Shown one piece after another: positions 1,961 to 33,000 of a stretch of DNA of 64,000 bases; position 1 is the stretch's first letter, and every line of letters begins with the position of its first letter. The notes below the pieces were generated by a model. That model was not told the DNA's origin and did not search any database. It saw only the letters and a list, made by a program, of their open reading frames with translations. Source of the stretch: Stomoxys calcitrans (lineage: Eukaryota > Arthropoda > Insecta > Diptera > Muscidae). The stretch lies in NCBI RefSeq assembly GCF_963082655.1, contig NC_081554.1:192230206-192294205 (forward strand), written 5' to 3'. Both the position numbers and the translations under genes were made by a program.

Positions 1961-2080
1961 CGTGTTATTCCTTGATACTGCATTGTTCTGAGTATGATTT
2001 ACTTTTGTTATGCTCGTCGATAATGGATTCTTCCATACCATTGCAGGGGTAAATGTATTATTGGCTCTAGGAATGTTTTT
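1961..2080 (-). CDS. Mini-exon gene, 40-codon exon type D
   Basis: 120 nt, outside the duplicated unit. Acceptor TTTACAG, donor GTAAAT. It starts KNIPRANNTFTPAMVW and ends QNNAVSRNNT. Sequons NNT, NHT and NNT align with those of types B and C. Read-through meets TAG after three codons and overlaps an AATAAA, so a transcript could also end here. Confidence 0.7.
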
Positions 2081-5000
2081 CTGTAAAATATTAAAAAATG
2101 CATTTAAAATTGTGGTTGCAGCAATTGATACGAAATTTAATGCCACATATTTAAGAATGACATTCCCAGAAAACCATAAAAGTCAGAATTCACTTTGGCA
2201 ACTAATATTTTCCCATTCCGTACCGAAGTAATGCGCCCGGTCATAAAAATCAAATTTTATATGAACACTATGCCCGTCCCTTTTTTTTTTTGCTTTCTGA
2301 CCTCTCACTAACAAAGAGTAGAGAAGGCTCTAACATTTTTCGAAACAGACATATGTTGAGAATGCATCAAATTATACCAAATTTTGTAGCACATAACAAA
2401 TTTTTGCTCTGCACAGTTAAATGTATACAGATATTTACCGTGCTATTCCATGGTACAGCTGTGTTTTGGGTTCGATTTACTTTTGTTGTGTTCGTCGATA
2501 ACGGGCTCTTCAAAACAATAGAGGGGGTAATTGTATTATTCACTCTTGGAACGTTATTCTGTGAAGTAATAAGAAAATTATTAAAAAATATCATAAAAGC
2601 TGAACGACATTTAATATCCTGTCTTTAAAAAAGATGGACAGAGATATGCGAATGCCTCAAAATTTGTTTCAAAGGTATTAAATGACTAAAACTCACCCTC
2701 CACCATGGATAACATTTATCGAGTTCTTTGCGCGGTATCTCTTTTTAGGCAAACAAAGAATAATAAATGAGAACTAGGGGCTCAAGAAGCAAAATCGGCA
2801 GATCGGTTTATATGGGAGCTGTATTAAGCTATAGATCGATTCAGACCATATTGGACACGTATGTTGAAGGTCATGGGAGACGCCGTTGTACAAAATTTCT
2901 GCCAAATAGGATGAGAATTGCGCCCTCTAGAGGCTCAAGAAGTCAAGATACCAGATCGGTTTATATGGCAGCTATATCAGGTTATGTATCGATTTCTGCC
3001 ATACTAAACACAGTTATTGGAAGTCATATCAAAACATCTCATGCAAAATTTCAGCCAAATCGGATGAGAATTGTGCCCTCTAGCGGCTTAAGAAGTCAAG
3101 ATCCAAGATCGGTTTATATAACAGCTATAGCAAGTTATGAAGCGATTTGAATCATACTTAGCACAGTTGTTGATAGTGATACCAAAACACCACGTGCAGA
3201 ATTACAGCCAAATCGAATAAGAATTGCGCCCTCTAAAAGCTGATGAAGTCAAGACCCAAGATGGGCTAGGTTTCAGCTTAATATTTTCAATTTTAAAAGA
3301 GTGTAGCTTGATTTTAACAGACAGACGGACGGAAATGACTAAATCGCATTAGATTTACGACTATCAAAAATATATAATCTTTATAGGATCGGAAATGGAT
3401 ATTTGGATATTTTGCAAACGGAATGACTAAATGAATATACCCTCTATCCTATGGTGGTGGGTATAAAAATTTTTCAGCGGTGATTATCACCCACTAATGC
3501 AGGCAACATTTGTGAGTTGCTATGCCTTGTTAAAACTTCTCCCTTAAGTGATGTCGCAATGCGGCACACGAACTCGGCTGTAAGAAGTAGGTCCCTTATC
3601 ATTGAGCTTAAACTTGAATCGGACAGCACTCATTGATATGTGAGAAGTTTGCCCCTGTTCCTTAATGGAATGTCCATGGGCAAATTTGAATTGCATTTTC
3701 GTTTGCATTACACGCGGTTTTAACCCACAACTTTTGCCAATGGCTCCCTTGCGGGTGCATAGGGCAAGTTTTTCCTTTCTTGCCCTTTTCAAAATGTTTG
3801 ATTTGAAGTTCAATTTCATTTTGCGCTTTCAGTAAATGAAACATTCTCTCCTCCCAAGGAGACTGGTGCCACCGTGGGTAACTCGCAAGAGTTACTAAAG
3901 AGAAAAACCCTCGCCTCAGACGGATTTACGCCTAGACCACTTTTAGCAGCCCACTGCGTTTTCGTACGTAGAGTTTCCTGAAGTTTTATCTTTATGAGTG
4001 CTTTCCCCTTAACCCAAAAGCTGTGTCATCTGCATACCACTTTTACACCCTTTCCCTCCAGGAACAAGATATATTGTTGATGGATATATTCAAAAGTAGA
4101 GAAGACAATACACCTCCTTGAGGAGTTTCTATGCTGATCCATCTTTTTATACCCTCCACAATTAGATGGGGGTATACTAATTTCGTCATTCTGTTTGCAA
4201 CACTTCGAAATATGCGTCTACAACCCCATAAAGACCTTCAACATACGTGTCCAATATGGTCTGATAAAGCTCCCATATAAACCTATCTCCCGATATTATT
4301 TCTTGAGCCCCAACAAGTCGCAATTCTTATCCTAATGAACTGAAATATTACACAATGACTTCTATTGTACAATGTTCAGCATTCAATTCATTTATGGTCC
4401 CAATCGGACTGACTTGATATAGCTCCAATAGCATAACAGTTCTTATTCATTATTCTTTTTTTTTGCCTAAAAAGAGATATCGCGCAAAGAACTCGACAAA
4501 TTCGATCCATGGTGGAGGATATATAAGACTCGGCCCGACCGAACTTAGCACGCTTTTACTTATTAGATCTACATTTCCCAGTCGTAGTGCATCTAACTCC
4601 AAACTCCAGCTTCTTTATGATTGAGATCATTGAAAGCAAAGTTATATAATTACCGTGTTATTCCGTGTTACAGCTGTGTTCTGGGTACGATTTACTTTTG
4701 TTATGTTTGTCGATAATGGAATCTTTCCATTAACAGTGGGGATAATTGTATTATTAACTCTTGAAACGTTATTCTGTAAGATTATAAGAAAATAATTAAA
4801 TTAGTAATATTTACTACAGTGTAGTATGAAATGGTACAAAATGTAATAACCTGTGTTTGAAAAATACTGGCAAGGAAGTGTGAGTACCACAAAATAAGAA
4901 GTTAAATGACTAAAACTCTAGCCAAATAATGACAATTTTTGAAATTTAAAAAAATATAAATAAATTAAAAAAAAATATTTCCATATGTCTTATTATCTTA

Positions 5001-8000
5001 GTCTTCATTTCGTTTAGTACCAAATTACGTCAAAAAATAGTAAAATCTTATACATTATATGGCATGTAATATGTTCTATAAAATAAAGATTTTCTATTTC
5101 TTTACATTATTTCTCCCAAAGGGGAGATTTTCCGTTACAACTGTGTAAAGTAGCACAAAATCTTGTATCATACATTAATCTATAGTTCTTATGGTCATAG
5201 TTTTATATTTACAGTTTTTGTGTTATTCCTTGATACTGCTGTGTTTTGGGTAGTATTTAATCTTGTAAAGTTTGACGTTAAAGTTCCCCTCATACCAATG
5301 ACAGGTGTTTTATTTGTTGCAGAGAAGCTGGTCTGTAAAATAAAATAAATATATAGATTTATTGTTTATTTCTCTTTCGAGAAGAGCGTAATAATTGAAA
5401 ATCTTTCTTGCAATGAAAAAGAAAATGCCAGAGGTAACCACACACCAAGAAACATTTCGACCTTGGTTATGGCTCATCCATTAACTGGGGTATAGAAGCT
5501 TTGAAGGCCATTCGCCGAAGTTAAAGCATTAACGAAGTGATACGAGACTAACCAATTTCGACACCTTGTCACACTAAATGTCCTTATCCAATTCATGTGT
5601 TTTTGTGGTAGTGATGGGTGATTATTATTTTTATACTCTCCACAATGGGATGGGGGTCATAAAGATCAAATTTTATATGAACACTATGTCCGTCCCTTTT
5701 TTTTGTGCTTTCTGACCTCTCACTAACAAAGAGTAGAGAAGGCTCTAACATCTTTCGAAACAGACATATGTTGGGAATGCATCAAATTATACCAAATTTT
5801 GTAGCACATAACAAATTTTTGCTCTGCACAGTTAAATGTATACAGATATTTACCGTGCTATTCCATGGTACAGCTGTGTTTTGGGTACGATTTACTTTTG
5901 TTGTGTTCGTCGATAACGGGCTCTTCAAAACAATAGAGGGGGTAATTGTATTATTCACTCTTGGAACGTTATTCTGTGAAGTAATAAGAAAATTATTAAA
6001 AAATAACATAAAAGCTGAACGACATTTAATGTCCTGTCTTTAAAGAAGATGGACAGAGATATGCGAATGCCTCAAAATTTGTTTCAAAGGTATTAAATGA
6101 CTAAAACTCACCCTCCACCATGGATAACATTTATCGAGTTCTTTGCGCGGTATCTCTTTTTAGGCAAACAAAGAATAATAAATGAGAACTAGGGGCTCAA
6201 GAAGCAAAATCGGCAGATCGGTTTATATGGGAGCTGTATTAAGCTATAGATCGATTCAGACCATATTGGACACGTATGTTGAAGGTCATGGGAGACGCCG
6301 TTGTACAAAATTTCTGCCAAATAGGATGAGAATTGCGCCCTCTAGAGGCTCAAGAAGTCAAGATACCAGATCGGTTTATATGGCAGCTATATCAGGTTAT
6401 GTATCGATTTCTGCCATACTAAACACAGTTATTGGAAGTCATATCAAAACATCTCATGCAAAATTTCAGCCAAATCGGATGAGAATTGTGCCCTCTAGCG
6501 GCTTAAGAAGTCAAGATCCAAGATCGGTTTATATAACAGCTATAGCAAGTTACGAAGCGATTTGAATCATACTTAGCACAGTTGTTGATAGTGATACCAA
6601 AACACCACGTGCAGAATTACAGCCAAATCGAATAAGAATTGCGCCCTCAAAAAGCTGATGAAGTCAAGACCCAAGATGGGTCTATGGACAGCTATATCAG
6701 GTTAACCTGCCTATTGATAACGAAAGAACCTGTGCTAAGTTTCAGCTCAATATTTTCAATTTTAAAAGAGTGTAGCGTGATTTTAACAGACAGACGGACG
6801 GAAATGACTAAATCGCCTTAGATTTACGATATATCAAGAATATATAATCTTTATAGGATCGGAAATGGATATTTGGATATTTTGCAAACGGAATGACTAA
6901 ATGAATATACCCTCTATCCTATGGTGGTGGGTATACAAATTTTTCAGCGGTGATTATCACCTCGTAATGCAGGCAACATTCGTGAGTTGCTATGCCTTGT
7001 AAAAACTTCTCCCTTAAGTGATGTCGCACTGCGGCATACGAACTCGGCTGTAAGAAGTAGGTCCCTTATCATTGAGCTTAAACTTGAATCGGACAGCACT
7101 CATTGATATGTGAGAAGTTTGCCCCTGTTCCTTAATGGAATGTCCATGGGCAAATTTGAATTGCATTTTCGATTGCATTACACGCGGTTTTAACCCACAA
7201 CTTTTGCCAATGGCTCCCTTGCGGGTGCATAGGGCAAGTTTTGCCTTTCTTGCCCTTTTCAAAATGTTTGATTTGAAGTTCAATTTCATTTTGCGCTTTC
7301 AGTAAATGAAACATTCTCTCCTCCCAAGGAGACTGGTGCCACCGTGGGTAACTCGCAAGAGTTACTAAAGAGAAAAACCCTCGCCTTAGACGGATTTACG
7401 CCTAGACCACTTTTGGCAGCCCACTGCGCTTTCGTACGTAGAGTTTCCTGAAGTTTTATCTTTATGAGTGCTTTCCCCTTACCCCAAAAGCTGTGTCATC
7501 TGCATACCACTTTTACACCCTTTCCCTCCAGGAACAAGATATATTGTTGATGGATATATTCAAAAGTAGAGAAGACAATACACCTCCTTGAGGAGTTTCT
7601 ATGCTGATCCATCTTTTTATACCCTCCACAATTAGATGGGGGTATACTAATTTCGTCATTCTGTTTGTAACACTTCGAAGTATGCGTCTACAACCCCATA
7701 AAGACCTTCAACATACGTGTCCAATATGGTCTGATACAGCTCCCATATAAACCTATCTCCCGATATTATTTCTTGAGCCCCAACAAGTCGCAATTCTTAT
7801 CCTAATGAACTGAAATATTACACAATGACTTGTATTGTATAATGTTCAGCATTCAATTCATTTATGGTCCGAATCGGACTGACTTGATATAGCTCCAATA
7901 GCAGAACAGTTCCTATTCATTATTCTTTTTTTTTGCCTAAAAAGAGATATCGCGCAAAGAACTCGACAAATGCGATCCATGGTGGAGGATATATAAGACT

Positions 8001-11000
8001 CGGCCCGACCGAACTTAGCACGCTTTTACTTATTAGGTCTACATTTCCCAGTCGTAGTGCATCTAACTCCAAACTCCAGCTTCTTTATGATTGAGATCAT
8101 TGAAAGCAAAGTTATATAATTACCGTGTTATTCCGTGGTACAGCTGTGTTCTGGGTACGATTTACTTTTGTTATGTTTGTCGATAATGGAATCTTTCCAT
8201 TAACAGTGGGGATAATTGTATTATTAACTCTTGAAACGTTATTCTGTAAGATTATAAGAAAATAATTAAATTAGTAATATTTACTACAGTGTAGTATGAA
8301 ATGGTACAAAATGTAATAACCTGTGTTTGAAAAATACTGGCAAGGAAGTGTGAGTACCACAAAATAAGAAGTTAAATGACTAAAACTCTAGCCAAATAAT
8401 GACAATTTTTGAAATTTAAAAAAATATAAATAAATTAAAAAAAAATATTTCCGTATGTCTTATTATCTTAGTCTTCATTTCGTTTAGTACCAAATTACGT
8501 CCAAAAATAGTAAAATCTTATACATTATATGGCATGTAATATGTTCTATGAAATAAAGATTTTCTATTTCTTTACATTATTTCTCCCAAAGGGGAGATTT
8601 TCCGTTACAACTGTGTAAAGTAGCACAAAATCTTGTATCATACATTAATCTATAGTTCTTATGGTCATAGTTTTATATTTACAGTTTTTGTGTTATTCCT
8701 TGATACTGCTGTGTTTTGGGTAGTATTTAATCTTGTAAAGTTTGACGTTAAAGTTCCCCTCATACCAATGACAGGTGTTTTATTTGTTGCAGAGAAGCTG
8801 GTCTGTAAAATAAAATAAATATATAGATTTATTGTTTATTTCTCTTTCGAGAAGAGCGTAATAATCGAAAATCTTTCTTGCAATGAAAAAGTAAATGCCA
8901 GAGGTAACCACACACCAAGAAACATTTCGACCTTGGTTATGGCTCATCCATTAACTGGGGTATAGAAGCTTTGAAGGCCATTCGCCGAAGTTAAAGCATT
9001 AACGAAGTGATACGAGACTAACCAATTTCGACACCTTGTCACACTAAATGTCCTTATCCAATTCATTTTGTGTTTTTGTGGTAGTGATGGGTGATTATTA
9101 TTTTTATACTCTCCACTATGGGATGGGGGTATACTAATTTCGTCATTCTGTTTGTAACTCCTCGAAATATTCGTCTAAAATCCCAAAAAAGTATATATAT
9201 TCTTGACAGTCATGACAGTTTAAGTCCATCTAGCTAAGTCCGTCCGTCTGTCAGTCGAAAGCACGCTAACTTTCGAAGGAGTAAAGCTAGCCGTTTGAAA
9301 TATGGAAATGCACAAATACTTCTTATTAGCGTAGGTCGGTGGAAAGATTGTAATCCGTTTTAGCTGAAATTTTGCATAACGTGTTCTGTTATGACTTCCA
9401 ATAACTGTGTCAAGTATGGTTTAAATCGGACCATCATCTAATATAGCTGCCATATCAACCGATCTTGGATCTTAACTTCTTGAGCAACAAGAGTGGGTAA
9501 TTCTTATCCGAAGATTATCTTGGCTCAAATTTTGCATCAGGTGTTTTGTTATGATTTCCAACAACTGTTCTAAGTATGGTTGAAATCGGTTCATATCCAG
9601 ATGAAAACTCCCATATAAACCGATCTGGGTTCTTGATTCTAGATAGCGCAATTCTTATCCGATTTGGCTGAAATTTAGCATGACGTGTTTTGTTATGACT
9701 TCTAATAAATGCACCAAGTATGCTTTAAATCGATTCATCATCTGATATTGCTTCTTTAGCCACAAAAGTGCTCAATTCTTATCCGATTTGGCTGAAATTT
9801 TGCACGACGCATTTTGTTATGACTTCCATAACTGTGCTAAGTTTGGTTCAAATCGGTTCTTAATCTGATATAGCTGCCATATAAATCGATCTTGAATATT
9901 GACTTTTTGAGCCACAATGGGTACAATTATTATCCGATTTGGCTGAACTTTTGCATTACGCGTTTTGTTATGACTTCCAATAACTGTGCCAAGTATGGTT
10001 TAAATCGGTTAAATTTCTGAGCTGCTAGAGGGCGCATGACGTGTTTCGTTACGACTTCCAATAACTGTGCCAAATATGATTTACGTAGGTCCATAACCTG
10101 ATATAGCTGTCATGTAAACCGATCTGGGCAATTATTATTCGATTTGGCTGAAATTTTTGTACAACGGCTTTTCCCATGACCTTCAACATACGTGACAAAT
10201 ATGGTCTGAATCGGTTTATAGCCTGATACATCACCCTATACGATCCCCTATTTTATTTCTTGAGCCCCTTAAGGGCGCAATTCTAATTCGAATTGACCGA
10301 AATTTTACACAATGACTTCAACTATGGTCTCCAACATTAAATTCATTTATGGTCCGAATCAGACCATAACTTGATATAGCTCCAAAAGCAAGGCAATTCT
10401 TTTCTTTTATCCTTTGTTTGCCTTAAAACTGATACCGGGAAAAGAACTCTACAGATGCAAACCATGGTGGAGGGTATATAAGATTGGGCCTGGCCGTACT
10501 TAGCACGCTTTTACTTGTTTTCGATTTTTTATAGCCTAAACCACCACTTTGGTACATGGTATTATAACTAAGTGCATTTCTTTGTAACTCCCGGATCGAC
10601 CGATCGACTAAGAATCACTTTCTGATTCGATTTAGCTATGTCCGTCTGCATATCTATCTATCTATCTATCCATCTGTCCATGTTAATTTGTTTACGTAAC
10701 TTTCGTCCGATTGTCTTAAATTTGATACACTCATGTTTTTTGGCCTAGAGACGGTACCTATTGAAATTGGAAAAAATCGGTTCAGATGTAGATATAGCTC
10801 CCATATATATACTCGTCCAATTTGAACTAATAAAGCAATAATGTGGTCATTTAACCGACCGATTCTGTCGAACTTTGAAAGGATTGAGTTTCTTGTGACT
10901 CTCGACATTACTGGCGAATTTCATAGCAATCAGTTCAGATTTAGATATAGCTCTCATATATATGTATCGCCTGATTTTTACTTCTAAAGCCACTGTTAGC

Positions 11001-14000
11001 GCATTTATTGACCAATCTCCCCAAAATTTTGTTCAACGCTTTCCTCGACGACTACCACAATATCTATAGGGTTTGGTCCAAATCGGTTCAGATTTAAAGT
11101 AGCTCCCATATATATGTTCGTCAAATTTTGAGAAATATTACAATCAAGTGCTTGATTGTTAATCGTTTCTCTCGCAATTTGGCAGGAATGATTTTCTCGC
11201 GACTCTCAACATTACTGATAAATTTTATAGAAATCAGTTCAGATTTAGATACAACTGCCATATATATATATTGCAATTGCATTTATAGACCAATCTTGCC
11301 AAAATTTCTCTTTTCTCAACGGCTCAACGACGGATTGTTTAATAACCCATCTGAAAAATTAAAATTAAAAGCTTCTAGGAACACGGATGATCGAGAGACC
11401 GTTTTACAAGGGAGCCATATCAGGTTATAGACAGATTTATACCGTACTTGGCACAGTTATTGAAAGTCATTACGGAACAGCACATGCAATATTTCAGGCA
11501 AATCGGGCAAAAATTGCGGCTTCCAGGGGCTCAAGAAGTCTAATCGGGATATCGGTTTATATGGGAGCTATATCAATATGGACTGGTTTAGACCGTACTT
11601 GGCACAGTTGGTAGAAGTCAAAACGGAACAGCACATGCAATATTTCAGCCAAATCGGACAAGAATTGAGGCTTGTAAGCGCTCAAGAAGTCAAATCGGGA
11701 AATCGGTTTATATGAGAACTATATCTTAATCTGAACCGTTATAAAGTATCTGTTCAAAATTTCAGGCAGCTAGCTTTACGCGTTCGACATCTATCCTGAT
11801 TTTGACAGACGGACGGACGGACATGGCTAGATCGATTCAAAACGACGAGACGATCAAGAATATATATACTTTATGGGGTCTAAGACGAATATTTCGAGGT
11901 GTTACAAACGGATTAACTAGATTAGTATACCCCCATCCTATGGTGGTGGGTATAAAAATGTACCAAGTGCCGCACTGATGTTACAACACCTTACCTTAAT
12001 AAATACTTACCGTATTAACTTTCCCCCCTGAATTGAATGCAGTTTTTGTAACATTTCTTTGACCTCCATTTATGTGAAAATTTCCCGTCACATTCCTGCT
12101 TGGACTCTGTGAATTAAAAAAAAAAAATGCATATATATTATCCTATTTTAGTGATATACATAAATATTTGTACTGGGTATAGTGTGGCCTAAGTAGTTAA
12201 ATAATAAAAAGACTTCTACATTGAAATATATATTAAAATATTTTGTAAAACAAAAAAATACCTGATTAACGTTGTTTCGAATTTCATGAGCAGTAAAGTT
12301 ATTTCCAGTTCTCAGGCGATTACCTAAAGATGTGGTATTAAATTTCTAAAAAAAATTTAAAAAGAGAAAAAAACATAATTTATCCATTTTTAATTGGCGA
12401 AATTGTAACACACTTCTTTTATTTTACTTATTCTTCATTCCTTTTTTATTTTGTTTAATTTGTAAGAATTTTATTTTATTTTATTTTATTTTATTTTATT
12501 TCCAAGATTTTAATTATGTCATTGTGATTTTTTGTTGTATGAAATATTTAACTACACTTACTTTTGCCGAAAGTGGTGCTCTGAAACCTGGTGGTGTGTT
12601 CACTAATTGTTGTTTGTTGGAAATATGGGTTAAATGATCTGGTGCCTACAATCAATAATAAACAAAATTATGCGACATTTTGACATTACAAATATTGAGG
12701 AGAAATGGATTTTATTATTAAATTCTAAAATTTGTTAATAAATTTACTTACTGGTGGTGGTGGGGCCGATGGCGTATGTGTTTGCTATCCAATGAAACAA
12801 AGCAAAATAAAATTTCAAAATAACACTTGTTTCTGATTTAATATTTTTCCACAAATTTTTTTACTTACCCTAGTGGGCAATCGTGCCTGTGGTTTAAAGG
12901 ATTGCTTGAAAAAAGAAGACATTAAGCAATTAACACAAAATTTTGTTTTAAGGTAAGCAATAGGCATTTTTCATAACATTTTTAAAATCTATTGTTTTAT
13001 ACCCTTAGTGTAGGTCGGTTGGGATTGTAAATGGCCAAATTGGTCCAAGTTTTAATATAGCTGCCATATAAACCGATCTTGGGTCTTGACTTCTTGAGCT
13101 TCTAGAGGTCGCAATTCTGATCCGATTTGGCCGAAATTTTGCATGACGTGTTTTATTTTGACTTCCATCAACTGTGTTAAGTATGGTCTAAATCAGTGTA
13201 TATCCTTATATGCAAAAATGCAAATTTTGCCCATGAACATTCCACTAAGGAACAGGGGCAAACTTCTCACATATCAATGAGTGCAGTCCGATTTAAGTTT
13301 TAAGCTCAATGATAAGGGGCCTCCTTTTTATAGCCGAGTCCGAACGGCATGCCGCAGTGCGACACCCCTTTCGGAGAAGTTTTACATGGCATAGTACCTC
13401 ACAAATGTGGCCAGCATTAGGAGGGGAAAACCACCGTTGAAAATTTTTTCTGATGGTCTCGCCAGGATTCGAACCCAGGCGTTCAGCGTCATAGACGGAC
13501 ATGTTAACCTCTGCGCTACGGTGGCCTCTGCGCTATCCTGATATAGCCGCCATTTTACCCGATCTTCCGATTAGAATTCTTGGGCTTCTAGAGGGTGAAA
13601 TTCTTATCCAATATGGTGGAAATTTTGCATATGTCGTTTTGGTATGACTTCTAACTACTGTTCTAAGTATGGTCTAAATCGGTATATAACCTGATATAGC
13701 TGCCATATAAACCGATCTCGCAGTTTGACTTTTTGAGCCTTTGGAGGGCGCAATTAATACTCGATTGGCCGGAAATTTTGGAGGTGGTGTTTTTTCTATG
13801 ATTGGTGTTTTTCTATTCCAAAAAGTCATTTAAAGAACTTGTCAAATGCGATCCATTGTGGAGGGTATAAAAGATTCGGCCCAACTGAACTTAGCACGCT
13901 TTTGCTTGTTCATATTAGTAGCAAACTTAATTATGGTGGAGCAAGACAGCATAAAAACCTAAGTCTGATTGCAAACAGATATTAACAACTAATACAACCT

Positions 14001-17000
14001 GCTTTTAAGACGGTTAAGGTTGGGAGGCTAAGCATATTGTAGAAAACTTCAACAACTTAGTCTTCTTCAATTTCGTACGAGGGCTTCTATATAAGTTTCT
14101 GGCCTAGGCAACACCAAGTGTTGTCAGCTGCAATCTGACATTTCCGTTGGAAAGTTTGACGTTCTCTAGTTTAATTGTACTCAGAACGTTTTGACGAACG
14201 ACCATCATATGTGTTGTTTGCAATGACTTGCAAAAATTAATTTGGTAAAATATGGAATTAACTCGTAAACATTTTCACGCGACCATTTTTCACAACTTTC
14301 GACATGGATTTTCTTGACAAGAGAGCATTGATGAATTTGATGAGTGCATTGATGAATTATGTGGCGTTGAAGAACCATCCTATAGCACTGTAAAAAGCTA
14401 GTTTAGTGAATTCATCCGTGGGCGATGATCGCTCAAAATCTAATTCCGTGAAGGTCGTCCAAGAATGTTCATTGTACCAGAGAACATTGATGCTGTGCGT
14501 GAACTTATAATGCCCGTTAAGTGAGATACTTTAAAATAGAGGGATCCTTAGGCACTTCTTCCACCACCACACATTCTATATTGCATGAACACCTTGCCTT
14601 AAAAAAGGTTTGTTCATCCTATTTGGACCAATATTGCAATAATTAATTATCAATCGACCTACTCAAAATTTTGCACAACAATAGAATGAGCAAGGACTTT
14701 GGTCGAAATTCTAGGTATTAAATTAAAACAGATATTACCTTCGAAGACTTAGCCGCCATACCCAAGGTGGTCGTGGGTATTAAAAGGTCGGCTTTGCCCG
14801 GTTTCAGCCCATCCTTACTTGGTATTGATTAATTTTTACGTGTTAATACTTACTTTTTGTGGTGGTGGTGGTGGCGGCGGTGGCGGTGGTTGTGGTATAA
14901 ATGAGTTAAATGGTTTCTGTCATAGGAAAAAAAAAAATAAAAAATTATATTAATTCGATAATATAAATATTTTTTTTTGCATTAGGGATCTTATAAATGA
15001 TGCATGCGATCATTTCCCAATAATTTAAAGTTTTTTTTACTTACTGGTGGTGGAACAAGAGTATCAGATGGTTTCTAGAATGGGAAAAATTAAATAAAAA
15101 AAATTCATTAGTTAGTAGGAATAAATATTTGTTCTTTATTTAAATAAAGAAAATGATTAAATAATTGTCCATTAATCTATGTCCGTGATCGATGGAGTAG
15201 ACCGATCCCCTGAAGACTTTTTAGCAAATTTTTTTATTGATCCAATTGAAAATATTATTGAAATTTCCGAAATATCCACTTAATTAAAAAAAATTACTGA
15301 ATCCATTAACTTTTTAATTGAAAATGACAAAAATTTCAATCACGATCGTAAATGAAAAATGTCAGATTCAATTAAAAAACTGATTAAATCCATTAACTTT
15401 TTTTATTGAAAATTGCCTAAATATCAATCACTATCGTAATTGAAAAAAAACCGGATTGGGTAAAAAAATGATTGATTGAATTAATTTTTTAATTGAACAA
15501 ATTTTAATAACCAATTAAGTTTTTAATTAAAAAAATTTTCGTGACATTTTTATCTGTGTACTTCTAAAAACCTTTCATTTGAGTCCCTTATTCCCAATAC
15601 AAAAACAAAATTCCCCATCAACATTCCATTAAACGGGGAGCAGGGGATACTTCTCCCATATCAATGAGTGCAGTCCGATTTAGTTTAAGCTCAATGATAG
15701 AGTTCCTTCTTTTTTATGCCGAATCTGAATGGCGTGCCGCATAGCAACACCACTTAGTGGAGAAGTTTTAACATGGCAACATACCTCACAAATGTAGCCA
15801 GCATTAATAGGGGATAACCACCGCTGAAAATTTGTCTGATGTCCACGCCGGGGTTTGAACCCATGCACTCGGCGTCAAAGGCGGACATGTTAACCTCTGT
15901 TCGGTTTGACATTGTTTTTGGGGGCGGGATTGCCACCCAGACACTTGCCTCTAAATATAGATATCAGATTCCTGCTCTACTCCGAAATACCTTTCATTTA
16001 AGCCCCTTATAGCCATGGTGGGTAAATATGTCCGATTTGGGAGGGTTTTGGGAGTGGGGCCCCCCATAGACTTAGCCTCGCTATTTCAAATCACGTCACA
16101 ATATATAAAAATAAAGATATTAAGCTGAAACTTTTCACAGGTTCGTTTTTATACGCACCACCGAAGGATGGGAGTATATTCATTTTGTCATTCCTTTTGC
16201 AACACATCGAAATATCCATTTCCGACCCTATATTCTTGATCGTCGTAAAAATCCAAGACGACCTAGCCATTTCCGCTGGTCTGTCCGTTTGGATGATGAA
16301 ATCATGCCACAGTCTTTTAAAATAGAGCTATTAAGCTGAAACTTTGCACACGTTCTTTTTTTGCCCATAGGCATGATAAGTTCGAAGATGGACTATATCT
16401 TGATATAGCCCCCATATAGATCGATCTGCAGATTAAAGGTTTTACGCCCATAAAAGGCGCTTTATTATCTGATTTTGCTGAAATTTTGGGCAGTGAGTTG
16501 TGTTAGGCCACTCGGTTACCTTCTTCAATTTGGCCCAGATTGGTCCAGATTTGGATATAGCTGCCCTATATACCGATCTCTCGATTTAAGGTCTTGGACT
16601 CATAAAAGCCACATTTATTGTCCGATTTCACAGAATTTTGGGACAGTGAGATGTGTTAGGCACTTCAACATATTTTTTTTTTCAAATTGGCTTAGATCGG
16701 TCCAGATTTGGATATAGCTGCCATATAGCCCGATCTCTCGATATAAGGTCTACAAATGTAGCCAACTGACCAGTCCCGAACGTGAAATAAAATTTTCACT
16801 GAACTCGCCTCACAATAAGTCCATTGTTACGAGTGTGGCATGTAGCATCGTCTTGTTCAAACTATATGTCACGCAAGTCAAGCTCTTGCTTTTTGGGCAA
16901 TAGAAGTTGGATATCATCTCAGGATAGCGCTCACCATTCACAATTGCATTACGATTCGTCTCATCTTTGAAGAAGTACGGTCCAATGACGCCACCAGCCC

Positions 17001-18381
17001 ATAAACCGCACCAAACTATGACTTTTTCTGGATGCATTGGTAGCTTTTACAATGCTTCTGGCTCAACTTCACTCTAAAATCGACAATTCCGCTTATATAC
17101 GTACCCATTGAGCCAAAAATGAGCTTCGTCGTTCAATAGAAGAGGCGTGCGTTGAACTTTCTTAACAGAGCACGCATTTTGATAATAAAATTCAATAATT
17201 TGCAAGCATTGTTCGTTTGTAAGACGATTCATGGTACAATTATAGACCAAACTGAATATGTTTGACAGTGAAACAAAACACGAAACGTGCGTTAGCTGTT
17301 TAAATTAATGTTGCCAAAAAGATAATAGCTAAAAAATCACCCTTTATGAGAAGAATTTGTTTCTACATCCAAATACCTAACATTTAAATTTCTTGTTGTA
17401 CTGAAGCGTTTGATACTTGACTAAAATTTTTATTTCAAATTCGTACACTACTCCCCAATACCTTTCATTTGAATTGCAATTAGTTCCGATCGGAACTAAT
17501 GTGGGAATGGAATGTGGCGGCTCTACAAACATGGGGAGCGAAATGTTAATATTTGATTAATTGTTAACTTCAAAATACCATCCATTAGCGTGAGAGTTTT
17601 TGAGAATAATCTCCTTTTAATGTCCGCTTATGACGCTGAACGATTAGGTTCGATTCCTGGCGAGAACATAAGAAAAAATTTCAGTGGTGGATATTCCCTC
17701 TTAGTGCTTGCGACATTTGTGAGGTACTGTACCATTCGGTATGGCAGCCATGTATAAACTTCTTCACAAAGAGGTGTCGAATTGCGGCACGCCGTTCGGT
17801 CTCGGCTCTAAAAAGGAGACCTCTTATCAATGAGCTTAAATTTGAATCGGCCAGCACTCATTTATATGTTAGAAATTTGCCCCTGTTCCTTAATGGAAGA
17901 TGATGATTTATTGATACCACATAAGTGAGAGCCCAAAGACTCTGGTGGGAATCCCCCAATCACATATACACAATTTTTAAAAAATCGTTGCCGCAAGCAT
18001 ACAGCTTAAATACTACTACGAATGGCAGTAGAATTTAACCTTTCCCCACCTTAGTCATTATTTGCTTACTCAATAAAATATTTTTATTTATATACTTACA
18101 TTTACTAATCTTTTTGCATTAGGATTATATCGGCGGCTTGAAGGCTGAAATGAGATGAAAAAAATATTAAAATCAAATTGAAGACTATATAGATTTAACT
18201 AAATCTCAGAGAAATTTAGTAGTTTTAGTTGAATTCTCTATTCAGATCTTACTGCCTTTAATATCTTACTGCCCGAGGAATATTGAGCACAGTCCTTTTT
18301 GGAGCCGTTGGCACCACAAACTTTTGTCACACAAATATGTAAGACTAAGCCGGATATTATTGTCATCCATTTCAAATTCAT
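1961..18381 (-). CDS. Mini-exon gene for an unknown secreted, N-glycosylation-rich protein (16 exons)
   Basis: I do not recognise this gene. Read on the minus strand, exons are 18381-18253, 18144-18100, 15074-15045, 14916-14854, 12904-12869, 12784-12752, 12645-12562, 12345-12262, 12106-12011, 8802-8683, 8243-8124, 5973-5854, 5332-5213, 4773-4654, 2558-2439 and 2080-1961. Every exon is a multiple of three (30 to 129 nt) and every junction is phase 0, giving 480 codons with no stop. Most donors are GTAAGT, GTAAAT or GTAATT. Exon 1 encodes a signal peptide (MNLKWMTIISGLVLHIC, cut probably after VCG). Exons 3 to 6 are proline-rich. Exons 10 to 16 are 40-residue repeats with three to five N-x-T/S sequons each. 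The only cysteines are in exon 1. This suggests a secreted, heavily glycosylated, disordered product. The 3' end is unsure: the last exon may be 1749-1729, lie outside the window, or be any read-through exon. Inference from sequence only. Confidence 0.75.
2439..2558 (-). CDS. Mini-exon gene, second copy of exon type C
   Basis: 120 nt, partner of 5973-5854 at an offset of 3415. The smaller offset is explained by a 55-base deletion in this unit near 3265. Frame and splice sites are intact. Confidence 0.7.
2700..3460 (+). repeat. Family I repeat inside duplication unit 1
   Basis: Units with GATCGGTTTATATGGCAGC and the end CCTCTATCCTATGGTGGTGG. It lies in an intron of the mini-exon gene. The partner copy is at about 6115-6935. 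Confidence 0.8.
3470..3690 (+). mobile_element. tRNA-derived SINE, 3' part
   Basis: Starts TTTTCAGCGGTGATTATCAC and runs through CGAACTCGGCTGTAAGAAG, GAGCTTAAACTTGAATCGGA and GTTTGCCCCTGTTCCTTAATG. The tRNA-like head is missing. The same fragment is at about 6940-7155. Confidence 0.7.
3840..4140 (-). mobile_element. LINE reverse transcriptase fragment
   Basis: On the minus strand a broken frame reads TPQGGVLSSLLLNI, which matches the TPQGGVLSPLLWN block of R1/LOA-type reverse transcriptases, followed by GKGVKVVCR (from the GVKVVAYADD region) and GLGVNPS. Stops and frameshifts make it dead. The partner is at about 7310-7615. Confidence 0.65.
4142..4562. repeat. Family I repeat fragment
   Basis: From TATACCCTCCACAATTAGATG to GACTCGGCCCGACCGAACTT, the two ends typical of family I. 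It has only one internal unit and a TTTTTTTTGCCTAAAAAGAG junction. The partner is at about 7618-8036. Confidence 0.75.
4654..4773 (-). CDS. Mini-exon gene, second copy of exon type B
   Basis: 120 nt, partner of 8243-8124 at an offset of 3470. It has threonine where the other copy has proline near the C-terminal end (VTRNNT). Splice sites are kept. Confidence 0.7.
5213..5332 (-). CDS. Mini-exon gene, second copy of exon type A
   Basis: 120 nt, the tandem-duplicate partner of 8802-8683, at an offset of 3470 bases, with the same splice sites and reading frame. Confidence 0.7.
5854..5973 (-). CDS. Mini-exon gene, 40-codon exon type C
   Basis: 120 nt. Acceptor TTCACAG, donor GTAAAT. It starts NNVPRVNNTITPSIVL and ends QNTAVPWNST. 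Four sequons. The only difference from the copy at 2558-2439 is synonymous (CGT against CGA, Arg). Confidence 0.72.
6940..7160 (+). mobile_element. tRNA-derived SINE, 3' part (duplicate copy)
   Basis: Tandem-duplicate partner of the SINE fragment at 3470-3690, with a few substitutions. Confidence 0.7.
7310..7615 (-). mobile_element. LINE reverse transcriptase fragment (duplicate copy)
   Basis: Tandem-duplicate partner of 3840-4140 with the same TPQGG block and the same disruptions. Confidence 0.65.
8124..8243 (-). CDS. Mini-exon gene, 40-codon exon type B
   Basis: 120 nt. Acceptor CTTACAG, donor GTAATT. It starts NNVSRVNNTIIPTV and ends QNTAVPRNNT. Five sequons (NVS, NNT, NIT, NRT, NNT). 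It differs from its copy at 4773-4654 by one base, which gives proline here and threonine there. Confidence 0.72.
8683..8802 (-). CDS. Mini-exon gene, 40-codon exon type A
   Basis: 120 nt. Acceptor TTTACAG, donor GTAAAT. It starts TSFSATNKTPVIGM and ends QNTAVSRNNTKT, with sequons NKT, NFT, NTT and NNT. The sequence matches the exon at 5332-5213 base for base as far as I can read. It is the most divergent of the three exon types within the duplicated unit. Confidence 0.7.
9105..10515 (-). repeat. Family I repeat, long copy
   Basis: Opens with CCACTATGGGATGGGGGTAT and closes with ACCATGGTGGAGGGTATATA and GTACTTAGCACGC. It holds about six internal units (GCTGAAATTTTGCACGACGC, ATAGCTGCCATAT). 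No gene seen. Confidence 0.8.
10520..11385. repeat. Dispersed repeat, family III
   Basis: Opens ACCACCACTTTGGTACATGG with TAAGTGCATTTCTTTGTAAC, then units with TATAGCTCCCATATATAT. A second copy opens at 54168. It abuts a family I fragment at 11386-11960. Confidence 0.65.
11386..11960 (+). repeat. Family I repeat fragment
   Basis: Two to three units (GGAGCTATATCA, GAAGTCTAATCGGG) and the canonical end CCCATCCTATGGTGGTGGGT. Located between exon 9 and the 40-codon exon array of the mini-exon gene. Confidence 0.75.
12011..12106 (-). CDS. Mini-exon gene, exon 9
   Basis: 32 codons, starting SPSRNVTGNFHINGG and ending GGKVNT. Acceptor TTCACAG, donor GTAAGT. Two NVT sequons. Read past the donor, a stop comes after four more codons, so this could also be a last exon in some transcripts. 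It is the upstream neighbour of the 40-codon array. Confidence 0.66.
12262..12345 (-). CDS. Mini-exon gene, exon 8
   Basis: 28 codons, starting KFNTTSLGNRLRTGNNFTAH and ending RNNVNQ. Acceptor TTTTTAG, donor GTATTT. Two N-glycosylation sequons (NTT, NFT). Confidence 0.66.
12562..12645 (-). CDS. Mini-exon gene, exon 7
   Basis: 28 codons, starting APDHLTHISNKQQ and ending FRAPLSAK. Acceptor TTGTAG, donor GTAAGT. Same length as exon 8. Polar, with no cysteine. Confidence 0.68.
12752..12784 (-). CDS. Mini-exon gene, exon 6
   Basis: 11 codons, QTHTPSAPPPP. Acceptor GATAG, donor GTAAGT. It lies 84 nt downstream of exon 5. Confidence 0.64.
12869..12904 (-). CDS. Mini-exon gene, exon 5
   Basis: 12 codons, QSFKPQARLPTR. 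Acceptor TTCAAG (a weaker AAG type), donor GTAAGT. It contains a KP pair like neighbouring exons. Confidence 0.62.
12990..13950 (-). repeat. Family I repeat with a SINE inserted
   Basis: Units on both sides (ATAGCTGCCATATAAACCGA at about 13055 and 13700) are split by the SINE at about 13218-13530. The element closes with GATTCGGCCCAACTGAACTT near 13880. Confidence 0.75.
13218..13530 (-). mobile_element. tRNA-derived SINE, nearly full length
   Basis: Minus strand: a head GGCCACCGTAGCGCAGAGG with A-box-like sequence and a B box GGTTCGAATCC, then the TTTTCAACGGTGGTTTTCCC body and the tail GTTTGCCCCTGTTCCTTAGT. The pol III boxes mark it as tRNA-derived. It is not a tRNA gene, since it cannot fold a full cloverleaf beyond the head. 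Confidence 0.75.
14252..14650 (+). mobile_element. Mariner transposase fragment
   Basis: Starts MELTRKHFHATIF and keeps the mariner N-terminal helix-turn-helix region (SYSTVKS..FSEFIRG, then EGRPR, PENIDAVRELIM), with stops and frameshifts. The catalytic part is absent. It lies in the intron between mini-exons 4 and 5, in opposite orientation to the gene. Confidence 0.7.
14854..14916 (-). CDS. Mini-exon gene, exon 4 (proline tract)
   Basis: 21 codons: KPFNSFIPQ, then ten prolines, then QK. Acceptor GACAG, donor GTAAGT. The CCA/CCG run is visible on the plus strand as a GGTGGTGG tract. Tracts like this are prone to length change. Confidence 0.7.
15045..15074 (-). CDS. Mini-exon gene, exon 3 (30 nt)
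   Basis: Ten codons, KPSDTLVPPP, between acceptor TTCTAG and donor GTAAGT. It opens with KP like exon 4 and ends in proline codons like exon 6, so exons 3, 4 and 6 are probably copies of one another. Confidence 0.68.
15150..15565. repeat. AT-rich internally repeated element
   Basis: Two or three imperfect copies of a unit with ATCCATTAACTTTTT, ATTGAAAATGACAAAAATTTC and AATCACGATCGTAA, ending TTTTTATCTGTGTA. It looks like a non-autonomous transposon, but I do not know the family. Confidence 0.45.
15610..15905 (-). mobile_element. tRNA-derived SINE
   Basis: Same family as 13218-13530. The B box region appears as GGGTTTGAACCC on the plus strand. Body and tail motifs are present. Confidence 0.7.
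15905..16755 (-). repeat. Family II repeat (with a short family V scrap)
   Basis: From the CACCACCGAAGGATGGGAGT boundary near 16156, with units carrying ATAGCTGCC and CGATTTAAGG. It is cut at about 16752 by a mariner remnant. 15905-16100 holds a scrap of family V (CTTTCATTTAAGCCCC). Confidence 0.65.
16755..17345 (-). mobile_element. Mariner-family transposon remnant
   Basis: Minus strand: MHPEKVIVWCGLWAGGVIG and GPYFFKDETNRN match the catalytic-domain region of a mariner-superfamily transposase. Upstream is the MNRLTNEQ-type start region, and the AAAAAATCACCCTTTA end near 17330-17345 is the terminus shared with 35659-36266. Disrupted by stops and deletions. Confidence 0.75.
17610..17905 (+). 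mobile_element. tRNA-derived SINE
   Basis: Starts inside the head (TATGACGCTGAACG, GGTTCGATTCC B box), then body CAGTGGTGGATATTCCCTC and tail GCCCCTGTTCCTTAATG. Confidence 0.7.
18100..18144 (-). CDS. Mini-exon gene, exon 2
   Basis: 15 codons, PSSRRYNPNAKRLVN. The acceptor is TTTCAG and the donor is GTAAGT. Basic and short. The intron that follows is 3 kb long and carries a SINE, a mariner remnant and other repeats. Confidence 0.7.
18253..18381 (-). CDS. Mini-exon gene, exon 1 (signal peptide)
   Basis: 43 codons from ATG at 18381. Residues 1-17 read MNLKWMTIISGLVLHIC, a charged start followed by a hydrophobic core, then VTKVCG and a mature end with two cysteines. Two GTAAGA donors are present. 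The distal one (exon end 18253) keeps phase 0 like all later exons; the proximal one (18270) would leave phase 1. An Inr-like TCAGTT lies at 18430-18425, about 50 nt upstream. The start shares the M-x-L-K-W...I-S pattern with the small gene at 20892. Confidence 0.75.
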
Positions 18382-18699
18382 TTTGCCGTTTAGGTATATT
18401 TTAAATCTTTACTGTATGAAAGCGAACTGAGAATGTTTAGGATTTTATTATTTTTATCATATTTGCAACAGAAATATATATTTATAATAAACAGCCAGTC
18501 ATAATTGTGGCTGAATAAAAAGAAAACCCTTTTTGAAAGTGATTCAGACAAATGTAATGACTTCGTATACCTCTTCTACTAATAATAGGCAATCAGTTGA
18601 TTCTATAGATCTGATGAAGAACTTTTTTTTAGATTCTATAGTAATAGCTATTGGCTATACAGATACTTAGAACTGTAGAAAACTCAAAAAAAGACAGTG

Positions 18700-20676: not shown

Positions 20677-20892
20677 TTACCAACTTACCCCTGTGTGTAT
20701 AGCAGGCTTGACTCTTTGATGTGAAAGGCGATTTCCGGGTTTAGACCAACTTTTCCCTGTGTGCGTAGCGGGCTTGATTCGTTGGATATTTCCGGTTTTA
20801 GACTTCGAAGAACTACTACCCTTTGAGCGTGCAGCATTTGCATAAGTGCATAGAATTACACACGATATAAGTAAAATCCACTTTAAATGCAT
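20677..20892 (-). CDS. Small secreted peptide, 71 aa, with tandem HTGxSW repeat
   Basis: Not a family I recognise. ATG at 20892. Residues 1-20 (MHLKWILLISCVILCTYANA) form a clear signal peptide; the mature part is basic and starts ARSKGSSSSK. Two imperfect repeats follow, each of the form SK-x-GN ... QR-x-KPA-x-HTG-x-SW, the second ending at the stop. The start resembles exon 1 of the mini-exon gene 2.3 kb downstream (M-x-L-K-W, I-S), so the two are probably related. In the second repeat GGG-GTA-AGT replaces GGG-AAA-AGT, which creates a perfect GTAAGT donor in phase 0 (exon end 20689). Either the gene is intronless, which the repeat favours, or it splices there. A TATA box lies about 90 nt upstream of the ATG. 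Confidence 0.6.
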   Translation of the reverse strand: MHLKWILLISCVILCTYANAARSKGSSSSKSKTGNIQRIKPATHTGKSWSKPGNRLSHQRVKPAIHTGVSW

Positions 20893-27064: not shown

Positions 27065-27330
27065 ATGAATAAATTACAGTATTTTTCACTTATTATGTGT
27101 CTTTTGGCTCTCCTAATGCTACCAACCCTGGCAAAAAGCAAAGGTTCAATGGTAAAAGGTACCCAAGGATCTAAACTTGTGGTGAGTATTAAATGTTTTG
27201 AATTTGGGTTTGTTACTGCTAATTATGTCCCTTTTAACAGTCCCAAGTAAGCCCAACTGCTAGGAGGGCAGATGAAATTGTTGGTCGGAGTTTGTATGAT
27301 GTATTTTCGAATGATATTTTTTCAAAGTAA
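27065..27330 (+). CDS. Small secreted peptide, 68 aa, two exons
   Basis: Not recognised. Exon 1 is 27065-27181 (39 codons) and exon 2 is 27241-27330 (29 codons and TAA), with a 59-base intron GTGAGT...AACAG in phase 0. Residues 1-23 (MNKLQYFSLIMCLLALLMLP then TLA) form a signal peptide. The mature start AKSKGSMVKG resembles ARSKGSSSSK of the peptide encoded at 20892 on the other strand. Exon 2 holds a dibasic TARRADEIVGRSLYDVF stretch that could be a processing site. An in-frame ATG at 26999 would put 22 residues before the signal and is less likely. AATAAA follows at 27497. Confidence 0.65.
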
Positions 27331-30013: not shown

Positions 30014-33000
30014 TCACTTTTTCTGTTTGGCTGCCTTGCGATATTTCATTTTATCAATTAGCGATGTTACAGGTCCAATAATTGTCAACAGGAATACCAA
30101 AGCGGTGGCCAAGGCAAAGGCAGGTATGACATCAGCATCCACATGCTTCGTAAAGAATTCGGTGAAATATCCCATAACAACGGTGTTCATGGCAAAAGCA
30201 AATCCCAAAATGCCAAATAAGTTATGACGAAATTTAATTTCAGCTGGTGTATAAACTTTGTGGGCAAATTTGGGTTGAAAGAAATTCACTGTGCCACCAA
30301 GCACACTGGCAAAACTGGAGAAGGTGGCAATAAGACCTGAAAACAGCAAAACAGGAGATTCGAATTAGTTTTGATACAAATAGAACAGTTCCAGCCAATC
30401 TTACCCAATTTGCCATGCAATGTTGTAAAGTGTTCACCTTCGGTGTTGAAAATCTTTCCCAGACTACCCCAAATAGCCATTATACCTCCTATCAATTGCA
30501 AAATGCCATGAAATCTGGATTTATTACGATGTGATAGACTCCTGGTTATGGGATTGTAGGCATAGTGGGACATCAAAGCTTCAGCTGCCAAAAAGTTCCA
30601 CTGCAAAAATAGGAGAGAAGGGTTAAGATATTTTAAAACCAAAAATTAAAAAATAAACTACAAAAATCATCAATTCGAATGCAAGGAGAAGTAATTCACT
30701 TTTTTTAAAATAAAATCCAAAATACCTTTCAGGCAGGGTTTGAATTGCTTGAACATTTTTCAATGTAAAGCAAAGTTATTTTTGCTTTGCTGCCTCCATT
30801 TTGAAGTCAGCAATTCAAACCCTGTTTTTAAGCTTTTATGTACTTTTTTTAGATATTTGGTGTTTTTCCTATACTCAAAATTAAAAAAAATTGTTAGGTC
30901 ATTTTGCATTTTATATGATTTTATATTAATACTAAATGCAGGAAGCTTTTGCAGTTAAATGTCATTGGTTCAAATGAACTTTGATTTTCTAAAGCAAATT
31001 TGTATCTACTTCTCGTTGAGCGTAATAGCCTGCAATTTATTAGTTGTCTCTATTGTAACAGTTCGTTGACACAAATGTGTTTTTTGAGTATTGTAGTACT
31101 CAACATAAACCTTGTATGCCTAATGGGAATGGCCAATATATTGTACAAATTTCCATACAGGTATAAAAAAAAGTTATAAAAATAACTTGTCATTGCTTGC
31201 CTATTAATTGCCATTTTGAGGTTAAACGTTTTCAATTTCATATCAACATTTCAAAATTTACAGCATTTTTAATGTCTTAATATTCCATAAAAATTCAACT
31301 TTTTGACAAAATTGCCTTTAGATTAGATTAGGTTGAAAAGGGGGTGCGTATATCTTTAATCTGTAACTGTTCGCCATACCACGCCCCTAAGTCGGTTCAT
31401 ATCCGGTGTTGTGGACCAAACTTAGACCCGGTGTCTGTTATCCAGGAAAGCCATAGGAAATGCTCCAACGTCATTTCATCATCCCCACATGCCCCACCTA
31501 TGCTATCACTTACCGCCCTAATTTTGCCTGCTTACTTGGAGCTTGGATCTTCCTACCGACCGTTTTTCTGTTCCACTCGGACTGCGTCGCCCCGAAATTC
31601 TTCGAGTTGAACAAGTTTATTGACGGCGGTCCTCTGGCCTTCACTGCTAAATCGTTTGATCTTTTATTCCCTCTTACTCTGCTGTGATCCGACATCCAAA
31701 CTAGAGTTGGCAAACTATCGATAATACAAACAATTGATATTTTCGATATTTCCAATAATAAATATCGATAGGTTAGGTTAAAGTGACTCTAAAAGCCCAA
31801 CAACTTGCGAACATTCACATCCCCTAAATCAGACAGGTTCTCAAAGAAATGAGAACCTAAAATGGAACTCCTTCTAACTGTAGGATACACACACAGAAGG
31901 TGTTCTATAGTCTCTTCTTCCTCGATGTCCCTACAGCTTCTGCAAAAGTCATTGCTGGCAACGACGATACAATCTTTAATTTCCCTTCACCTATATTTCA
32001 AACGAAAATGAGAAGTAAAAATCAGGAGTCCGATTTAGGTAGTAGCAATATCAATACACAGACCAAACAAAACCAAGTCAGTTAGAGGTCATGAAAGAAA
32101 TAATTGCACAAAGTTAGCCCAATCGAATGAAAATTGCGCCCTCTATGGGCATCATCAAAAGCATCAATCGATATTCAGACAAAAAATTAATTATCGATAG
32201 TGCCACCGATATTTTGCTAGCTCTTATCCAAACGATGCGGATCGTGCCGTCCCAGTTTACCAGTTTAAAGATGTTCACACTCGACGTCCTCGTGTTAACA
32301 CACACCACCTCACGCATTCCGTTATCGCCCGGAACTCTGCAGGACCGAATTATGGTTAGGCAGGCGAAAACAATCAGTCTGTCATCAAGCTTTGATCCAT
32401 CTGTGCAGCTTGATCCCCCATATGGCAATACCAGGTTTTTGTCAATCCAAAACTGTGCTGCAGGCAGCAGTATCTCGCACCCGATCTCTTCTTTTACGCA
32501 ATGGTATGACCTGCTCCTATCCTCTATCCGTTCTCCCATCGCCTTACGTCTCATAGCCACAGTGGCTGCCTCACACTAAATCTGTATGTCTATGGGTCGG
32601 ATATATAGATTACTCTCCAGTGCCCTAGTGGACGTGGTCCTCATCGGTCCGCCTATGCAGAGACAACATGTTCTCTGAACCTGTTGTATTATCCTCACGT
32701 TGAACTTTTTCTCCATCGCAGTACAAAAGTTACTGAGGCGTAAATAAATATTGGTCTAATCACACTCCCACCGTAGCACAGAGGTTAGCATGTCCGCCTG
32801 TGACGGCGAACGCCTGGGTTCGAATCCTGGCGAGACCATCAGAAAAAATTTTCAGCGGTGGCTTTCCCCTCCTAATGCTGGTAACATTTGTGAGGTACTA
32901 TGTCATGTACCACTGCGGCACACCGTTCGGACTCGGCTATAAAAAGGATGCCCCTCAAACTTGAATCGGACTGCACTCATTGATATGTGAGAAGTTTGCC

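What the first reader, a model, noticed from the sequence alone, without database searches (positions are those of the whole stretch)
1961..18381. Previously undescribed mini-exon gene: sixteen phase-0 exons of 30 to 129 nt encoding a secreted protein
Seen: every exon is a multiple of three, all junctions are phase 0, splice signals are consistent, and the chain from signal peptide to type D exon stays open for 480 codons. Known: schistosome micro-exon genes and aphid bicycle genes also use many small exons to make variable secreted proteins. Inference: because all exons are symmetric, any of them could be skipped without changing frame, so one locus could make many secreted variants. I see no sequence homology to those systems.
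Basis: partly seen in the sequence, partly recalled or inferred. Interest (0 to 1): 0.92.

Follow-up and report, generated by a model that had tools for sequence, protein, structure and literature searches.

The report
Stable-fly membrane glycoprotein with cassette exons
The stretch holds most of a little-studied stable-fly gene, built from many small in-frame exons, whose predicted product looks like a sugar-coated protein anchored in the cell membrane rather than a freely secreted one; an apparent three-exon duplication and an exon remnant hint at how such genes gain and lose pieces without breaking.

Summary
All 16 minus-strand exons are there, each a multiple of three with AG/GT ends, open for 480 codons. 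A strict exon filter finds 12 candidates on this strand, 0 on the other, and a mean of 0.57 in 60 shuffles.

The interpretation needs correcting. UniRef already holds a predicted protein from this locus, Stomoxys calcitrans A0A1I8P5M7, 550 aa. (2) It runs past the window start to a transmembrane segment, so this isoform is membrane-anchored. (3) Six of the last seven reported exons are two copies (98.2-98.7% identical) of one three-exon block; the prediction has one copy. (4) A 10-codon exon of the prediction has no donor at its place here.

No homologue outside Stomoxys was found, although the neighbouring b561 gene finds many flies. Best reading: a Stomoxys-restricted N-glycosylated single-pass membrane protein changing by gain and loss of phase-0 exons, as vertebrate SCPP genes do. 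Expression and exon skipping are untested.

The parts
20689..20892 (-). First coding exon of the public prediction (exon B, 68 codons): signal peptide MHLKW..., phase-0 donor GTAAGT; not in the finding
   Evidence: 68 of 68 residues identical to A0A1I8P5M7; TATAAAA at 20982 and TTAGTT at 20950, 32 nt apart (not tested against chance)
18253..18381 (-).
   Evidence: Open, phase-0 donor; TCAGTT at 18430; resembles exon B over its first 14 residues (score 41; 4 of 500 composition-keeping shuffles as good); not in the public protein; signal-peptide-like starts with a donor are common here (16 rows in the window-wide screen)
18100..18144 (-). exon PSSRRYNPNAKRLVN, 45 nt
   Evidence: 14 of 15 residues as in A0A1I8P5M7
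15045..15074 (-). Pro-rich mini-exon, 30 nt
   Evidence: 10 of 10
14854..14916 (-). Pro-rich mini-exon, 63 nt
   Evidence: 21 of 21
12869..12904 (-). mini-exon, 36 nt
   Evidence: 12 of 12
12752..12784 (-). Pro-rich mini-exon, 33 nt
   Evidence: 11 of 11
12562..12645 (-). exon, 84 nt
   Evidence: 28 of 28
12262..12345 (-). exon, 84 nt, 2 sequons
   Evidence: 26 of 28
12168..12188 (-). Remnant of a 10-codon exon (ATLYPVQ of ATLYPVQGSK) of the public protein; no GT where its 30-nt exon would end
   Evidence: tblastn match 7 of 7; DNA printed
12011..12106 (-). exon, 96 nt, 2 sequons
   Evidence: 30 of 32
8683..8802 (-). N/T-rich 40-codon exon, block copy 1 (TSF)
   Evidence: 39 of 40
8124..8243 (-). 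N/T-rich 40-codon exon, block copy 1 (NNVS)
   Evidence: 40 of 40
5854..5973 (-). N/T-rich 40-codon exon, block copy 1 (NNVP)
   Evidence: 40 of 40
5213..5332 (-). N/T-rich 40-codon exon, block copy 2 (TSF)
   Evidence: 120 of 120 nt identical to 8802-8683
4654..4773 (-). N/T-rich 40-codon exon, block copy 2 (NNVS)
   Evidence: 119 of 120 nt
2439..2558 (-). N/T-rich 40-codon exon, block copy 2 (NNVP)
   Evidence: 119 of 120 nt
1961..2080 (-). N/T-rich 40-codon exon (KNIP); last exon found inside the window
   Evidence: 38 of 40
5655..9133 (-). Tandem duplication, copy 1
   Evidence: blastn self-comparison
2239..5661 (-). Tandem duplication, copy 2, 98.2-98.7% identical to copy 1 in two aligned pieces
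   Evidence: junctions share GGTCATAAA

Best explanation
One gene of the stable fly Stomoxys calcitrans, minus strand, from about 20.9 kb down past the window start. It encodes a single-pass membrane glycoprotein: signal peptide, Pro-rich stem, a run of about 40-residue Asn/Thr-rich units each encoded by one 120-nt exon with 3-5 N-glycosylation sequons, a Lys-rich stretch, a transmembrane helix and a tail of a few residues. It probably works as a mucin-like, sugar-coated surface layer or spacer (inferred); the tissue is unknown. As every junction in the window is phase 0, exons can be duplicated, lost or possibly skipped without a frame shift; the window shows one three-exon duplication and one exon remnant. 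Shown: exons, phases, duplication in this sequence, match to the predicted protein. Inferred: expression, glycosylation, surface role, use of two signal-peptide exons, isoforms.
For: Exon chain and phases. Match to A0A1I8P5M7: 377 of 385 residues over 13 exons, same order, same joints. Neighbouring b561 gene 172 of 172 residues identical to S. calcitrans LOC106080452. Hydrophobic segment in residues 516-546 (19-residue mean up to 2.91), helix 518-546 in a single-sequence model. 24 sequons, 22 of them in residues 166-430 against 13.1 +/- 2.9 in shuffles (7 of 2000 reach 22; the repeats are not independent). The three older repeat exons (NNVS, NNVP, KNIP) are 78-85% identical, their 100-nt intron flanks 55-72%, random intron pairs 60% on average (maximum 75%); dN/dS 0.34-0.66 in the 8 pairs used.
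Against: The public protein is a gene prediction, not a sequenced transcript; it bears only UniRef/metaclust tags, no NCBI tag, unlike its neighbour. No RNA data reached. The C-terminal exons were seen only as protein. The structure model, made without relatives, has mean pLDDT 42.9 and also draws low-confidence strands over 208-429, so neither disorder nor a repeat fold is shown. Selection evidence is weak: few changes, and NNVS against NNVP shows no third-position excess (6, 6, 6).
Confidence: 0.68

Rival explanations
1. One reading: a secreted protein of 16 exons from 18381 to the exon at 2080-1961, diversified by exon skipping like schistosome MEGs.
For: Exon A has a signal peptide, a TCAGTT initiator-like site and a phase-0 donor; reading through the donor of the last exon gives VNK and a stop, so a short secreted end is possible; all 16 exons symmetric.
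Against: The only known full-length product starts at exon B and ends in a transmembrane segment beyond the window. No evidence of skipping either way.
Confidence: 0.15
2. A decaying or barely expressed gene in repeat-rich DNA, with no selected function.
For: Found only in Stomoxys; repeats throughout the introns; one exon lacks its donor; no NCBI-tagged protein; third-position excess absent in one of three old exon pairs.
Against: Old exon copies better conserved than their flanks and still open at dS 0.24-0.58; 13 exons 97.9% identical to the public version without stop or frame loss.
Confidence: 0.12
3. About the duplication only: it is an assembly artefact (two alleles placed in tandem), or the single copy in the public prediction reflects a collapsed repeat in an older assembly.
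For: Copies are 98.2-98.7% identical. The 2021 reference was built from Illumina reads with contig N50 11.3 kb (sections 5 and 19), so a collapse is easy; that A0A1I8P5M7 comes from that assembly is assumed.
Against: Clean head-to-tail junctions with nine shared bases, GGTCATAAA, as in a real tandem duplication, though not proof.
Confidence: 0.3

Closest known systems
Stomoxys calcitrans A0A1I8P5M7 (UniRef, uncharacterized protein, 550 aa)
   Same: Same locus: 13 window exons, 377 of 385 residues identical
   Different: One copy of the three-exon block instead of two; extra exon ATLYPVQGSK; starts at exon B; has the C-terminal 155 residues that are absent from the window
Vertebrate SCPP genes (e.g. 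ameloblastin)
   Same: Virtually all introns phase 0; exons added by tandem duplication (human AMBN exons 8 and 9 from exon 7), so frame is kept (passage of PMC6732285); small exons and signal peptide are recalled
   Different: No sequence relation found; SCPPs are secreted (recalled), this prediction is membrane-anchored with N-glycan repeats
Schistosome micro-exon genes (MEGs)
   Same: Symmetric exons; products secreted or membrane-anchored, the anchored ones predicted heavily O-glycosylated (passages of PMC5825161)
   Different: About 80% of MEG coding sequence is in exons of 6-36 bp; here 99 of 1515 nt
Aphid bicycle genes
   Same: Many small internal exons of one phase; signal sequences; many gene-specific changes (passages of PMC9168663)
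   Different: Almost all internal exons phase 2, CYC motifs, 476 genes in one aphid (same passages); here phase 0, 2 Cys after residue 20, one gene seen

Membership tests
Schistosome MEG | About 80% of coding sequence in symmetric exons of 6-36 bp | tested here: not met
   99 of 1515 nt of the window chain (exon B start) in exons of 36 nt or less; definition from a passage of PMC5825161
Schistosome MEG | Symmetric exons | tested here: met
   16 of 16 reported exons and exon B (204 nt) divisible by three; exons beyond the window not seen
Schistosome MEG | Signal peptide; secreted or exposed membrane-anchored product | tested here: met
   By prediction only: hydropathy and model helices at residues 2-21 and 518-546 of P0001
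Schistosome MEG | Protein variants made by alternative splicing | not testable with these tools
   no transcript data
Aphid bicycle genes | Internal exons phase 2 | tested here: not met
   All phase 0; definition from a passage of PMC9168663
Aphid bicycle genes | CYC motifs | tested here: not met
   Cys 0.4% of P0001 after residue 20; no CYC on reading the sequence
Vertebrate SCPP | Virtually all introns phase 0 | tested here: met
   feature from a passage of PMC6732285
Vertebrate SCPP | Sequence homology with SCPP proteins | tested here: not met
   At the sensitivity used: no Pfam match, one homologue, from Stomoxys
Peritrophin-type mucin | Chitin-binding (peritrophin) domains | tested here: not met
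   No Pfam match
Single-pass membrane glycoprotein | Signal peptide, sequons outside, one transmembrane segment, short tail | tested here: met
   By prediction on P0001
Single-pass membrane glycoprotein | Sugars attached and protein at the cell surface | not testable with these tools
   needs the bench

The most novel reading that the evidence does not exclude
An insect counterpart of micro-exon genes in a blood-feeding fly: one polymorphic locus with two alternative signal-peptide first exons and a pool of phase-0 cassette exons, whose number differs between genomes of one species and which splicing combines into a varied set of heavily N-glycosylated surface proteins.
Probability: 0.15. Interest if true: 0.75.

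Novelty: new variant of a known kind. Interest (0 to 1): 0.45.

Why it matters
Genes built of many small exons of one phase are known from schistosomes, aphids and vertebrates, in unrelated proteins. A stable-fly case with an apparently recent three-exon duplication and an exon remnant would let the idea that symmetric exons speed the turnover of surface proteins be tested inside one species. Stable flies are livestock pests, and a fast-changing surface glycoprotein would bear on gut, saliva or reproductive biology once its tissue is known.

Tried and rejected
Strict exon filter elsewhere in the window: 4 scattered candidates, no chain. Further exons between 20700 and 18400 on the minus strand: none by the strict filter. 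Downstream exons for the plus-strand signal-peptide-like exon at 27065: one 27-nt candidate at 32557 up to 41500. The C-terminal 155 residues in the window: tblastn matches from residue 396 on fall on the repeat exons or at noise level, so those exons are taken to lie off the window. A membrane-active role for the Lys-rich helix (residues 458-478 of P0001): its helical moment is reached by 286 of 5000 shuffles, not put forward. Faster change than the neighbouring gene: 8 of 385 versus 0 of 172 residues, p = 0.06, not significant. dN/dS: of 21 pairs, 10 between a TSF exon and another unit were set aside because they align only with gaps, 1 TSF-TSF pair has no differences and 2 are the recent duplicates; 8 were used. 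Resemblance of exon A to the 27065 exon: 68 of 500 shuffles as good, none shown. A phage search with a CEP104 exon was beside the point and empty. Whether the salivary membrane proteins XP_013114823.1 and XP_013117270.1 of the stable-fly genome paper (section 14) are this gene could not be checked; in the library only that paper names them. Horn-fly sialome passages on mucins (PMC6664567) gave no link. Paper searches were seen as listings, apart from the passages cited.

Full report
What was checked. The 16 exons reported on the minus strand between 18381 and 1961 were re-derived from the sequence. All 16 lengths are multiples of three (30 to 129 nt), the 15 acceptors and 16 donors are AG and GT, and the joined frame is open for 480 codons. 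With a strict filter the gene strand gives 12 candidate exons in 16.7 kb, 11 of them reported exons and one (3448) inside a repeat; the opposite strand gives 0, the rest of the window 4 on both strands, and 60 dinucleotide shuffles a mean of 0.57 and a maximum of 2. Frames 1 and 2 of the gene strand give 3 and 0. Four of the 15 internal exons fail the strict filter, and a looser one lists many non-exons; it is the chain, not each exon, that is beyond chance.

Species. Two 3' exons of the neighbouring cytochrome b561-type gene (30600-30014, minus strand) are 172 of 172 residues identical to Stomoxys calcitrans LOC106080452; the Haematobia irritans protein is 88% and the Musca domestica protein 71% identical. 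The window is from the stable fly.

What the gene is. A search with the 480-residue translation returned one protein at E 0.001 or better out of 2304 candidates: A0A1I8P5M7, an uncharacterized 550-residue S. calcitrans protein. An automatic predictor rarely calls exons of 30-36 nt unaided, so transcript evidence may lie behind it (inference, not checked); the genome paper says that over 94% of predicted transcripts have RNA-Seq support, of the set as a whole (section 5). Against this, the entry carries no NCBI tag, while its neighbour does.

Four corrections follow. First, the prediction starts at an exon not in the finding, 20892-20689, with its own signal peptide, and with a TATA-like and an initiator-like site 32 nt apart upstream (not tested against chance). 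It resembles the other over 14 residues (4 of 500 composition-keeping shuffles score as high) and has a TCAGTT site 49 nt before its ATG, with the nearest TATA-like sites at -99 and -105, not at the usual distance; it may be an alternative first exon, unproven. Signal-peptide-like starts followed by a donor are common in this DNA (16 rows in the window-wide screen). Second, 155 residues follow the last window exon in the prediction, ending in a Lys-rich stretch, a hydrophobic segment (mean hydropathy up to 2.91) and a tail of a few residues; this isoform is a predicted membrane protein. Third, exons 8802, 8243 and 5973 and exons 5332, 4773 and 2558 are two copies of a head-to-tail block of about 3.4 kb, 98.2-98.7% identical in two aligned pieces; they differ at 2 of 360 exon sites and at 46 of 3044 compared intron sites, gaps left out. 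The prediction has one block. An older assembly from Illumina reads, contig N50 11.3 kb, could have collapsed it, or the window's assembly could have set two alleles in tandem. Fourth, the prediction has a 10-codon exon ATLYPVQGSK; the window keeps ATLYPVQ at 12188-12168, but no GT stands where that 30-nt exon would end; the only phase-0 GT nearby is a poor donor (GTACAA) after five codons.

Selection. The older 40-codon exon copies (NNVS, NNVP, KNIP) are 78-85% identical to one another, their 100-nt intron flanks 55-72%, and random intron pairs 60% on average with a maximum of 75%; the TSF exon is 71-73% like the others with gaps. dN/dS in the 8 pairs used is 0.34-0.66. Differences by codon position are 6, 6, 6; 9, 7, 12; and 5, 8, 13, so one of three pairs shows no third-position excess. 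This suggests mild purifying selection at most.

Protein character. P0001 has 24 N-x-S/T sequons, 22 of them in residues 166-430 (7 of 2000 shuffles reach 22; the repeats are not independent), and after residue 20 it is 15% Asn, 12% Thr, 10% Pro and 0.4% Cys. It has no Pfam match. A single-sequence AlphaFold2 model has mean pLDDT 42.9, with 443 of 550 residues under 50; it draws helices at 2-21, 184-193, 456-476 and 518-546 and many strands between 208 and 429, those at low confidence. Without relatives to align, low confidence proves neither disorder nor a repeat fold.

Relatives. A second search with the C-terminal 155 residues at E up to 1 found only the same protein among 483 candidates. 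The database holds Haematobia, Musca, Lucilia, Sarcophaga and Drosophila proteins, as the b561 search shows. At this sensitivity, which needs shared five-residue words and a similar length, the gene is known only from Stomoxys; diverged relatives could be missed.

Comparison with known systems. Exon size keeps it out of the schistosome MEGs: about 80% of their coding sequence lies in exons of 6-36 bp (passage of PMC5825161), here 99 of 1515 nt. Phase and motif keep it out of the bicycle genes (phase 2, CYC; passages of PMC9168663). Nearest in architecture are the vertebrate SCPP genes, in which virtually all introns are phase 0 and exons were added by tandem duplication (passage of PMC6732285), with no sequence relation found. 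Searches for the accession (0 papers) and for at least two of Stomoxys, micro-exon, microexon, symmetric exons and exon duplication (138 papers, 10 listed and looked at) showed no description of this gene; most subscription papers are not in the library.

Limits. No transcript data were reached, the window's own genome could not be searched (eleven unanswered calls, listed under steps to tell), and the C-terminal exons were seen only as protein.

Noticed in passing
window 27065-27181 (+): Signal-peptide-like exon on the other strand (MNKLQYFSLIMCLLALLMLPTLAKSKGSMVKGTQGSKLV, donor GTGAGT), resembling exon B over about 25 residues (12 of 500 composition-keeping shuffles as good); perhaps a diverged relative. 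No clear downstream exons.
   Followed up: partly
window 30014-30600 (-): Two 3' exons of a CYB561D2-like transmembrane reductase, identical to S. calcitrans LOC106080452.
   Followed up: yes
window 41497-47375 (+): CEP104 gene pieces (Pfam CEP104_N and CEP104-like_TOG).
   Followed up: partly
window 58218-58736 (+): Part of an odorant receptor (Pfam 7tm_6).
   Followed up: no
window 1-1.6 kb, 2.9-3.3, 6.3-6.7, 11.4-11.7, 19.8-20.3, 26.1-26.4, 28.5-29.2, 60.0-60.7 kb: Arrays of a repeat with a period near 153 bp, in introns and between genes; inverted copies occur in the first 20 kb.
   Followed up: no
window 17240-16870 (-): Looks like a broken mariner-type transposase fragment in the intron before exon 15074; named from memory, not searched.
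   Followed up: no
window 21.4-21.7 and 23.5-24.7 kb: Degenerate 22-bp tandem repeats (consensus such as TATGTGGATAATTTATCCACAT) upstream of the gene.
   Followed up: no
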